From Bacillota bacterium (GTDB lineage Bacteria > Bacillota > Clostridia > Lachnospirales > Lachnospiraceae): a stretch of 64,000 nucleotides of DNA. The notes under the pieces are model-generated. The model saw only the letters and a program-made list of their open reading frames with translations. It was not told where the DNA came from and did no database searches. The stretch spans positions 186,001 to 250,000 of the forward strand of contig JAEWYQ010000051.1 of NCBI GenBank assembly GCA_023395555.1, written 5' to 3'. Below are positions 4,831-44,812 of this stretch, piece after piece (position 1 is the stretch's first letter; every line of letters starts with the position of its first letter). Made by a program: the position numbers and the translations under genes.

Positions 4831-5021
4831 AACAATTCAGACTGTGGCAGGGAGGAGGGCAGGGTACTCCCATAATGCACTGTATGGAAGAGATGTGATT
4901 GGATTTGTATGGCACAGACGAACACAATTGTACGGCAGTGACATGCAAATCCAGTCATATGTCTTCCATCCTGTGTGTGAGGGAGTACCCTGCCCTCCTC
5001 TCTGTCACAGTCTGAACTGTT
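4831..5021. repeat. Long hairpin element, copy A
   Basis: Positions 4831-4871 pair with 4981-5021 over 41 positions with one A-C mismatch and two G-T pairs. An internal loop follows (4872-4884 opposite 4969-4980). An inner stem (4885-4920 with 4933-4968, a few mismatches) is closed by an apical region containing ACAATTGT. The whole element is a nearly perfect 190-bp palindrome between the M16 peptidase stop and era. Copy B at 44448-44622 shares the inner core and both internal-loop sequences but has unrelated, still self-complementary outer arms. Open frames through it are by-products of the palindrome. Confidence 0.9.
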
Positions 5022-10642: not shown

Positions 10643-11314
10643 ATGAAACGGTTTAAAATCACCGATCTGCTGATCGGAGTTCTATTCACCCTATTATTTA
10701 TCAGCATGGCAGTTGTGGTTACAATCAACTTCCGCCCCTTGTATTATCTGGACATTTCTCTTCTTCATATAGAGGAGACCTCCGGAATAAGCAGGGACGA
10801 GATCAAAGAGAATTATGATGCACTGATCGATTATTCTTCTCCCTTCTATCAAGGGGAGCTTCATTTTCCCACATTGCCCGCATCCGAGCACGGCCTGGTC
10901 CATTTTGAAGAGGTTAAGAATATCTTCACCGCTTTTTATCTGATGGCTGCGGCTGCCCTGGCTCTGGGAGTTCTGGTCATAATCCGCAAAACACGGCGTA
11001 ATGAGTACGGCTATCTCCTTACCTCTTCCATTATGGCTATTGCACTGCCTTCCCTTCTGGCCCTGCTGCTCTCAATTGATTTTGACCGTGCTTTTGTGGT
11101 ATTTCATGAGCTGTTCTTTGAAAATGATTACTGGCTCTTTGATCCTGCGACCGACCCGGTTATCCTTATCTTACCGGACACTTTTTTTCTGCACTGTGCC
11201 CTGATGATCATTGCACTGGTAATACTTATGAGTCTGCTGTCTCTGGGGGCATTTCTCTGGAAAAGAAAGCATTCCGGTATTAAATACCGCAGAAATAAAG
11301 GGTTAAAGCTATAA
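10643..11314 (+). CDS. Integral membrane protein, DUF1461/TIGR01906-type
   Basis: A protein of 223 residues when started at the ATG 10643, which has ATGGAGGCC immediately upstream; the earlier in-frame ATG lacks a site. There are about four membrane segments: near residues 9-29, 97-115, 128-146 and 190-210. A conserved-looking loop between the first two carries HFPTLPASEHGLVHFEEVKN, the pattern I associate with the DUF1461 (TIGR01906) family, whose function is unknown. The C-terminus is basic and cytoplasmic (WKRKHSGIKYRRNKG). It lies upstream of pyk on the same strand, separated by tandem hairpin repeats. Confidence 0.75.
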   Translation: MKRFKITDLLIGVLFTLLFISMAVVVTINFRPLYYLDISLLHIEETSGISRDEIKENYDALIDYSSPFYQGELHFPTLPASEHGLVHFEEVKNIFTAFYLMAAAALALGVLVIIRKTRRNEYGYLLTSSIMAIALPSLLALLLSIDFDRAFVVFHELFFENDYWLFDPATDPVILILPDTFFLHCALMIIALVILMSLLSLGAFLWKRKHSGIKYRRNKGLKL

Positions 11315-11416
11315 AACAACGACAAGTTAAAACTGCTTGTCTTATGTTCAAACAACGACAAGCGAAAACCGCTTATCTTATGTTCACAACGACAATGCCG
11401 TAAACCGGCAGTATGG
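11315..11416 (+). repeat. Tandem 36-bp hairpin repeats in the pyk leader
   Basis: Two directly adjacent 36-bp units (11315-11350 and 11351-11386) share the flanks AACAACGACAAG and TTATGTTCA. Each folds into a small hairpin whose stem bases differ between units. A third, partial unit (from 11387) starts CAACGACA, carries the hairpin TGCCG-TAAAC-CGGCA and runs into the pyk ribosome site. A related AACGACAAGCGG hairpin forms the guaB terminator at 15679-15709. These are not CRISPR repeats, as there are no spacers. Confidence 0.8.
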
Positions 11417-23360: not shown

Positions 23361-23461
23361 CTGTGACCTTCTCCTTCCCATTTTCCCTCTTACTTATCGC
23401 AAGAACACGCCCGGCTGTAATCCGGCCGACGGCGCAAGCATTGCCGCTTTTTGCCGTAAGC

Positions 23462-23586
23462 TGTAATCGCGGTGTACCACACAGGTGCCGTTGTTATCAT
23501 ATCTTATATTACAGGAACAAAGTGCATGTTCCTGTAATCGGGGTGTACAATACAGATACGCTTGTTCTTATATCTTATATTACCAG
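23462..23586. repeat. Two 54-bp direct repeats in the nrdD leader
   Basis: Positions 23462-23515 and 23533-23586 share a TGTAATCG.GGTGTAC start and a TATCTTATATTAC.(A)G end, with a diverged middle. Between them ACAGGAACA and TGTTCCTGT can pair. They lie between the NrdR boxes and nrdD, so within the nrdD leader if transcription starts near the boxes. Function is unknown. Confidence 0.65.
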
Positions 23587-23612
23587 AAAGAGCCATGTTC
23601 GTCAACAATAAA

Positions 23613-37781: not shown

Positions 37782-37824
37782 AGCTTACTTCTGAATAAAT
37801 AAACGAGATCAGAAGATATGGATC

Positions 37825-37894
37825 ATTGCAAAAAGAATGCCGCGGGAGAATCGGGTTATATGACTCGGTTCTTCTGCGGCATTCTTTTTGCAAT
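37825..37894. terminator. Terminator after the XRE regulator
   Basis: ATTGCAAAAAGAATGCCGC pairs perfectly with GCGGCATTCTTTTTGCAAT, with further pairing (AGAA/TTCT) inside. A-run and T-run are part of the stem, so it can work in both directions. Confidence 0.85.
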
Positions 37895-37921
37895 GCGCCT
37901 TAACTAATTAAATTTCATTTG

Positions 37922-44323: not shown

Positions 44324-44447
44324 CTTCGTGCCTCCATATAGTTCGCCTTAGCGGCTGTTTCACTTCACTATCATATTCCGACTATCTCATTTTTTCAAGT
44401 AAATATTAAATATTTCTAAAATTTTAGACAGCAAGCGATTACAGTTC

Positions 44448-44622
44448 ACAGGGTAGCCGAGTGGAGGACATGATGCTCCCTCACACACAGGACGGAAGAC
44501 ACATAATCGGATTTGTATGCCATAGACGAACATATTTGTACGGCTATGGCATACAAATCCAATCATATGTCTTCCATACAGTGCATTACGGGAGCATCAT
44601 GTCCTCCACCCGGCTACCCTGT
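44448..44622. repeat. Long hairpin element, copy B
   Basis: Outer arms 44448-44480 and 44590-44622 pair at 32 of 33 positions. They are unrelated in sequence to the outer arms of copy A apart from the innermost CTCCC/GGGAG. The inner stem-loop (about 44494-44576) matches copy A in the same orientation. The two internal-loop segments (TCACACACAGGA left, TACAGTGCATTA right) are exchanged relative to copy A, as if the core had flipped inside the palindrome. It lies in the divergent sulP/ftsH gap; no other gene is seen in 44324-44812. Confidence 0.9.
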
Positions 44623-44812
44623 AAACCAATGTCAGTAAGTTAGGCCAGGAGCACTCCGGAACAGTGCCAGAGAGGGCTGGCAGGGGTTCCCCCCAAGGCA
44701 CAGACAGGAAAGCCTTCCATATTTTAAACATGGATATTTAATCGATTTATGTTAGAATAGAAGACGTGATTGTAAATAATTTACTCACTCTGAGAAAGGC
44801 ATGGTTACCACA

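What the first reader, a model, noticed from the sequence alone, without database searches (positions are those of the whole stretch)
4831..5021. Two long hairpin elements with a conserved core but different, compensated outer stems
Copy A (4831-5021) and copy B (44448-44622) are each nearly perfect palindromes. Their inner stem-loops and both internal-loop segments are clearly homologous. Their outer arms (about 33-41 bp) are almost unrelated in sequence, yet each pairs within itself. Such preserved pairing despite sequence change implies either selection on a folded nucleic acid or a copying mechanism that rewrites one arm from the other. I do not recognise the element as a described RNA or MITE family. 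It could be a structured RNA, a transposable hairpin or a protein-binding site.
Basis: seen in the sequence. Interest (0 to 1): 0.78.

Follow-up and report, generated by a model that had tools for sequence, protein, structure and literature searches.

The report
Mobile hairpin element near gene ends
The two hairpins belong to a dispersed family of small, apparently mobile DNA palindromes in one group of Lachnospiraceae bacteria, whose sequence drifts freely while one strand keeps its ability to fold, so a folded single strand seems to matter to the element even though no enzyme that moves it was found.

Summary
Both hairpins are real (z -16.4 and -15.5). They are members of a dispersed family without an Rfam match. 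A covariance model finds it in 24 of 31 genomes of the Herbinix/Mobilitalea genus but hardly outside (2 of 299 family, 2 of 391 class genomes). Anatomy: GGGGCTG...CAGCCCC-type ends in many copies, variable but self-complementary arms, two conserved internal-loop boxes, an apical hairpin.

Pairing is preserved through 749 double-changed cells (shuffled mean 274). Mismatches are strand-specific: G.U far exceeds A.C near the core (123:19) but not near the ends (53:70). A second genome repeats this for the whole hairpin (137:40), not significantly for its outer arms alone (44:28). So one strand folds, as RNA or single-stranded DNA.

Copies favour sites between convergent genes, show no target duplication, and include 97-98% identical copies with unrelated flanks. 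No transposase could be assigned. Most likely it is a non-autonomous MITE/REP-like element with a functional folded strand; RNA versus ssDNA and the way it moves stay open.

The parts
4831..5021 (+). Copy A, whole hairpin; + is the strand with the AATGCACTG box on the left, the strand that shows the wobble excess in the family
4831..4871 (+). Copy A, left outer arm; 4838-4850 CAGACTGTGGCAG is a weak match to the family's end sequence GGGGCTGTTKCA
4981..5021 (+). Copy A, right outer arm, complementary to the left one
4872..4887 (+). Copy A, 5' internal-loop box ATAATGCACTGTATGG
4967..4982 (+). Copy A, 3' internal-loop box CATCCTGTGTGTGAGG
4917..4936 (+). Copy A, apical stem-loop GACGAACACAATTGTACGGC
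44444..44626 (-). Copy B, whole hairpin, inverted relative to A by its boxes
44444..44480 (-). Copy B, outer arm (right arm on the - strand); no family end sequence recognised
44590..44626 (-). Copy B, outer arm (left arm on the - strand)
44574..44589 (-). Copy B, 5' internal-loop box (GTAATGCACTGTATGG on the - strand)
44479..44494 (-). Copy B, 3' internal-loop box (CGTCCTGTGTGTGAGG on the - strand)
44525..44544 (-). Copy B, apical stem-loop

Best explanation
A and B are copies of a genus-limited, non-autonomous mobile palindrome of about 170-230 bp (MITE/REP-like). SHOWN by comparison: it is dispersed at unrelated sites; many copies have short GGGGCTGTT(T/G)CA-type ends; its body is a hairpin with two conserved internal-loop boxes; its arms change sequence but stay complementary; and one defined strand tolerates G.U much better than A.C in the inner ~26 bp of the arms and in the inner stem. 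INFERRED: the folded strand is most likely an RNA (a single-stranded DNA substrate is the main alternative), and the fold is needed by the spreading lineage more than by the host at each site. A trans-acting enzyme, not identified, recognises the ends and/or the boxes and places new copies, without target duplication, at 3' gene ends, sometimes apparently in the middle of terminator-like hairpins. Arms drift because their pairing matters and their sequence does not.
For: Covariation on 81 copies: 52 of 60 pairs with double changes (shuffled mean 36.9), 749 double-changed cells (274), score 0.408 (0.165), 0 of 500 shuffles for each. Wobble: GU:AC 123:19 within 26 nt of the core, 53:70 beyond 32 nt; 144:50 in 34 disjoint closest pairs; 137:40 and, in 20 disjoint pairs, 61:20 in the independent genome G690. 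Conserved U.G wobble in 73 of 81 copies next to the box. Dispersal: 97-98% identical G690 copies with unrelated flanks; only one pair of loci syntenic on both sides between genomes; 0 of 80 relatives' loci around site A hold a copy; an orthologous site without the element in G687. Placement: 43 of 78 convergent against 68 of 493 background gaps, 20 of 39 in G690. No target duplication. No lagging-strand bias, 30 of 52. Youngest M. sibirica cluster decays evenly.
Against: No transcript or promoter was seen; RNA is inferred only. G.T is also tolerated in folded ssDNA (established knowledge), so wobble does not tell RNA from ssDNA. In G690 the outer arms alone show only 44:28 (p 0.08); with only 8 very dissimilar copies the excess is 9:4, not significant. 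No transposase was assigned. In G690 a 9-copy cluster has fewer private changes in the boxes (1 of 232 against 48 of 1319, p 0.007), and a loose 24-copy cluster 5 of 862 against 74 of 3264 with 10 compensated changes, which points to some selection in place.
Confidence: 0.6

Rival explanations
1. The folded strand is single-stranded DNA: a REP/IS200-IS605-like hairpin moved by an HUH (Y1) transposase that recognises one folded strand and its irregular internal loop.
For: No target duplication; one strand only; conserved mismatched internal loop, as TnpA-REP needs a mismatch in the E. coli REP stem and binds one strand only (passages of PMC8266576); extragenic 3' placement.
Against: Y1_Tnp found in 1 of 6 genomes (G005) and no copy near those genes; no leading/lagging bias (30 of 52 by GC skew, 31 of 49 by gene strand); the wobble excess stops before the ends. 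The MAGs may be incomplete, and G690 was not searched for Y1.
Confidence: 0.2
2. The hairpin is a host regulatory or 3'-end RNA element (terminator, RNase III site) selected in place at each gene.
For: Strong 3'-end placement; G687, without copies, has a terminator-like hairpin at the matching place; fewer private box changes in some G690 clusters.
Against: The wobble excess is present whatever the direction of neighbouring genes, and sense and antisense placements are about equal (27:20). Sites are rarely shared between species. Young copies decay evenly in one cluster. Convergent placement is also found for pneumococcal repeats and IS elements (passages of PMC3049150).
Confidence: 0.08
3. 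Arms stay complementary mainly because DNA template switching or conversion inside the palindrome copies one arm onto the other.
For: Matched private changes at both ends (106 against permutation mean 58, maximum 76; rare ones 11 against 2.8, maximum 7); palindromic flanks beyond the ends (6 of 43 at score >=6, expected 0.3; 5 of 34, expected 1.1); 52 of 110 double changes are transversion-type.
Against: Copying has no strand preference, yet GU exceeds A.C and non-wobble mismatches are depleted near the core. Single changes dominate between close copies (220 single, 52 double at >=75% identity). Up to 3 mismatches were allowed, so some of its 62 'ends' are chance picks.
Confidence: 0.1
4. The hairpin moves through an RNA copied by a reverse transcriptase.
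For: RNA-like wobble; no target duplication; RT genes in G690, the genome with the most recent copies seen.
Against: No RVT_1 match in G001, G002, G003, G005, G006, G697 or G698, which all carry copies; RTs are also common in genomes without listed copies (5 of 8 others).
Confidence: 0.05

Closest known systems
MITEs with hairpin transcripts (Correia/NEMIS elements of Neisseria; BOX and RUP of pneumococcus)
   Same: Short, dispersed, intergenic, palindromic, with inverted ends and a conserved core; pneumococcal repeats also favour convergent genes (passages)
   Different: No target duplication and no parent IS found here; stems are sequence-variable but compensated, with strand-specific wobble
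REP / REPIN elements with TnpA-REP (RAYT)
   Same: Extragenic hairpins; strand-specific fold with an irregular stem (passages of PMC8266576)
   Different: Several times longer; no GTAG tag noticed in the boxes; no linked Y1 transposase
SPRITE (terminator-like repeat of pneumococcus)
   Same: Terminator-like hairpins concentrated between convergent genes
   Different: The element here is a much longer hairpin with conserved internal boxes and GGGGCTG ends
Group IIC introns (recalled)
   Same: Insertion next to terminator hairpins without target duplication
   Different: No intron core in Rfam searches of the window and 20 loci; RT absent from several carrying genomes

Membership tests
MITE | Short non-coding dispersed element with terminal inverted repeats | tested here: met
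   Ends recognised in 43 of 90 and 34 of 42 copies; ends fixed by near-identical copies with unrelated flanks
MITE | Target site duplication | tested here: not met
   0 of 43 at the assumed ends; offset scans show no convincing signal (best z 3.7 and 4.0 among many hundred tests, the latter a 2-base match inside the ends)
MITE | Parent IS or transposase with the same ends | tested here: inconclusive
   33 end-pattern matches in G005, none in a pair at IS-like spacing; PF13751 0 of 4, PF01609 over cut-off 0 of 5; other transposase families not searched
REP / REPIN | Linked Y1 (HUH) transposase | tested here: not met
   Y1_Tnp in 1 of 6 genomes, no copy near; G690 not searched
REP / REPIN | One folded strand recognised | tested here: inconclusive
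   Strand-specific wobble excess shows a folded strand, not recognition or whether it is DNA
Known structured RNA family (Rfam) | Match above gathering score | tested here: not met
   0 in the window, 0 in 20 loci; only sub-threshold microRNA-like matches for A
Retroelement | RVT_1 protein in genomes with copies | tested here: inconclusive
   Absent from G001-G003, G005, G006, G697, G698; present in G004, G007, G106, G690, G689, G694, G696
Conserved structured nucleic acid | Covariation beyond chance and strand asymmetry | tested here: met
Transcribed RNA | A discrete transcript | not testable with these tools
   no expression data

The most novel reading that the evidence does not exclude
The element spreads through, or is guided by, its own folded RNA: a small selfish hairpin RNA that directs new DNA copies into terminator hairpins without target duplication, using an unrecognised or borrowed enzyme.
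Probability: 0.12. Interest if true: 0.88.

Novelty: new variant of a known kind. Interest (0 to 1): 0.52.

Why it matters
Bacterial MITE/REP-type palindromes are often treated as double-stranded DNA whose hairpin is a by-product of inverted ends. Here the mismatch spectrum (G.U tolerated, A.C avoided) says that one specific strand has been folding during the element's evolution, and it marks roughly where that fold stops. If the strand is RNA, this is a mobile element whose spread or tolerance depends on a structured RNA; if ssDNA, it points to an unseen single-strand recombinase. The same test can be applied to other dispersed palindrome families. The genus has genomes with dozens of copies, some recent, so the question is testable.

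Tried and rejected
Exact core pattern in IMG/VR and in genome contigs: no match; related copies found later differ from it. Three box patterns in IMG/VR and blastn in phages and plasmids: none. Autonomous IS with the same ends: not found with one end pattern and two transposase families. L153, which first looked like a transposase next to a half element, is a half copy behind what I read as a regulator-like reading frame (no family search was run on it). Lagging-strand bias: none. Rfam relationship: none. Gene-direction dependence of the wobble excess: none seen in the four classes; 4 unclassified copies gave 10:8. A claim that inserted copies decay neutrally was weakened by the G690 clusters. 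Arm copying is kept only as a possible contributor. The 90 copies come from the best 150 of 188 model matches (both strands counted), so a few weak places were left out. Nine of the 90 were left out of alignment A3 because of length, genome G106 or short flanks, and one of 42 G690 copies for a short flank. The A3 structure was predicted from A3 itself, which favours it in the slid-partner control. Gene names (M16C peptidase, era, SulP, FtsH) are from memory, not from calls. Papers: PMC3049150, PMC10969869, PMC8266576 and PMC2649163 were seen as passages only; all others only as search listings. No paper describing this family appeared in the searches.

Full report
OBSERVATION. Copy A (4831-5021) and copy B (44443-44627) are single long hairpins (z -16.4 and -15.5, 0 of 200 shuffles as stable). 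By their internal-loop boxes B is inverted relative to A.

FAMILY. The window's genome is not held. The peptidase gene beside A (M16C-like, a name from memory) placed the window next to a Herbinix MAG (82% identity), and further off Mobilitalea sibirica (67%). blastn of A gave matches at E<=1 in 6 of 7 of those genomes, best 2.4e-12. An alignment of 22 copies gave covariance model R1. R1 matches at E<=0.01: G001 15, G002 25, G003 32, G004 11, G005 (M. sibirica) 105, G006 5, G007 2, counting both strands of each palindrome. Wider: 24 of 31 genomes of the genus, 2 of 299 of the family (G005, G106), 2 of 391 of the class (G005 and one weak match); the last two used stricter filters. No Rfam match in the window or in 20 loci, and nothing in the phage, plasmid and IMG/VR searches.

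ANATOMY. Ninety distinct copies from the window and eight genomes show, from outside in: ends of the type GGGGCTGTT(T/G)CA (recognised in 43 of 90; 34 of 42 in G690); variable arms that pair with each other (76 of 90 with arm score >=30); boxes of the type TAATGCACTGTTTG and CAACCTGTGTGTGAG; a long inner stem; and an apical CGAACAnnnnTGTTCG stem-loop. M. sibirica also has copies with a second box type and core-deleted remnants with only ends and arms.

COVARIATION. On 81 of the 90 copies (A3) 86.3% of cells pair (shuffled 71.2%), 52 of 60 pairs have a double change (36.9), 749 cells are double-changed (274), and the score is 0.408 (0.165); 0 of 500 shuffles reach any of these, and slid controls give 38-46% paired. 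The structure was predicted from A3 itself and relatedness can inflate shuffle tests, so the mismatch spectrum was used as a second test.

STRAND. Without a folded strand, G.U and A.C should arise about equally. In the first 26 nt of the arms GU:AC:other is 123:19:70; beyond 32 nt it is 53:70:211 (76 copies). Thinning to 61, 43 and 24 dissimilar copies keeps the inner excess significant (p 3.5e-13, 2.1e-8, 7e-4); with 8 copies it is not (9:4). Thirty-four disjoint closest pairs give GU 144, AC 50 (p 1e-11). In the independent complete chromosome G690 (41 of 42 copies aligned) the hairpin gives 137:40, and 20 disjoint pairs 61:20; its outer arms alone give 44:28, p 0.08. A U.G pair (73 of 81 copies) and a neighbouring G.U pair (45, with A-U in 29) beside the box are conserved. 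The excess is present in all four classes of gene direction; 4 unclassified copies gave 10:8.

WHERE COPIES LIE. Of 90 copies, 43 lie between convergent genes, 19 (++) and 10 (--) in codirectional pairs, 6 between divergent genes, and 8 inside an ORF call; for 4 a neighbour is missing (simple ORF calls). Background in M. sibirica regions: 68 of 493 gaps convergent (p 1.5e-14 against 43 of 78; the copies counted come from all genomes). G690: 20 of 39 convergent, 8 ++, 10 --, 1 divergent. Sense against antisense totals 27:20. Orientation does not follow replication strand (30 of 52 by GC skew, 31 of 49 by gene strand).

MOBILITY. Between genomes only one pair of fetched loci was syntenic on both sides, and there the elements are in opposite orientation. 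None of 80 relatives' loci around the peptidase gene contains a copy. In G690, copies 97-98% identical have unrelated flanks starting at GGGG/CCCC. G687, without a match, has the L333 locus with a 172-bp instead of a 375-bp space between the aligned parts of the two genes. Its space holds a terminator-like hairpin of other sequence, and the L333 flanks with the element cut out also form one. Flanks are palindromic beyond the ends more often than chance (6 of 43 at score >=6, expected 0.3; 5 of 34, expected 1.1). Insertion into a terminator hairpin is the simpler reading, but arm copying into the flanks is not excluded. No target duplication was found.

ENZYME. PF13751 in 0 of 4 genomes, PF01609 over cut-off in 0 of 5, Y1_Tnp in 1 of 6 with no copy near. 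Reverse transcriptases are patchy: none in G001-G003, G005, G006, G697 and G698, but present in G690, which has the most recent copies seen, and in G004, G007, G106, G689, G694 and G696. No enzyme is assigned.

WHAT IS SELECTED. In the youngest M. sibirica cluster (13 copies) private changes are even (arms 4.0%, boxes 3.8%, stem 4.4%), with GU 12, AC 8, other 25 and no compensation, as for decaying copies of a selected source lineage. G690 is less clear. A loose 24-copy cluster has fewer box changes (5 of 862 against 74 of 3264), GU 13, AC 11, other 20 and 10 compensated changes. A 9-copy cluster has 1 of 232 against 48 of 1319 (p 0.007), while tighter clusters show no significant difference. 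The source-lineage model is likely, not shown.

CONCLUSION. A dispersed, mobile, MITE/REP-like palindrome whose one strand has been selected to fold. As a MITE it fails on target duplication, and a parent transposase was not found; as a REP it lacks the linked transposase in the genomes tested. It works like these, but is filed under neither.

Noticed in passing
37814-37905: Another inverted repeat, 46-nt arms 80% complementary with no spacer; not a match of model R1 in the window.
   Followed up: no
11314-11385: Two head-to-tail copies of a 36-nt unit, 89% identical.
   Followed up: no
23461-23588: Two 57-nt direct repeats 71 nt apart, 81% identical.
   Followed up: no
L358 (G690), 1464-1592: Apparent chimera: its left arm resembles the right arm of one G690 subfamily and its right arm belongs to another.
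   Followed up: no
L352 (G690), 1542-1834: Two copies lie head to tail, 164 nt from start to start.
   Followed up: no
L233-L238 (G005): Short remnants that keep ends and arms but have lost most or all of the core; L235 is a short palindrome around the end sequence.
   Followed up: partly
L366 (G705): Beside the same right-hand gene as in L333 lies a hairpin with the family boxes and a very short core.
   Followed up: no
L221-L224 (G106): Four loci without a long outer stem; in L222 and L224 only the inner hairpin is recognisable.
   Followed up: partly
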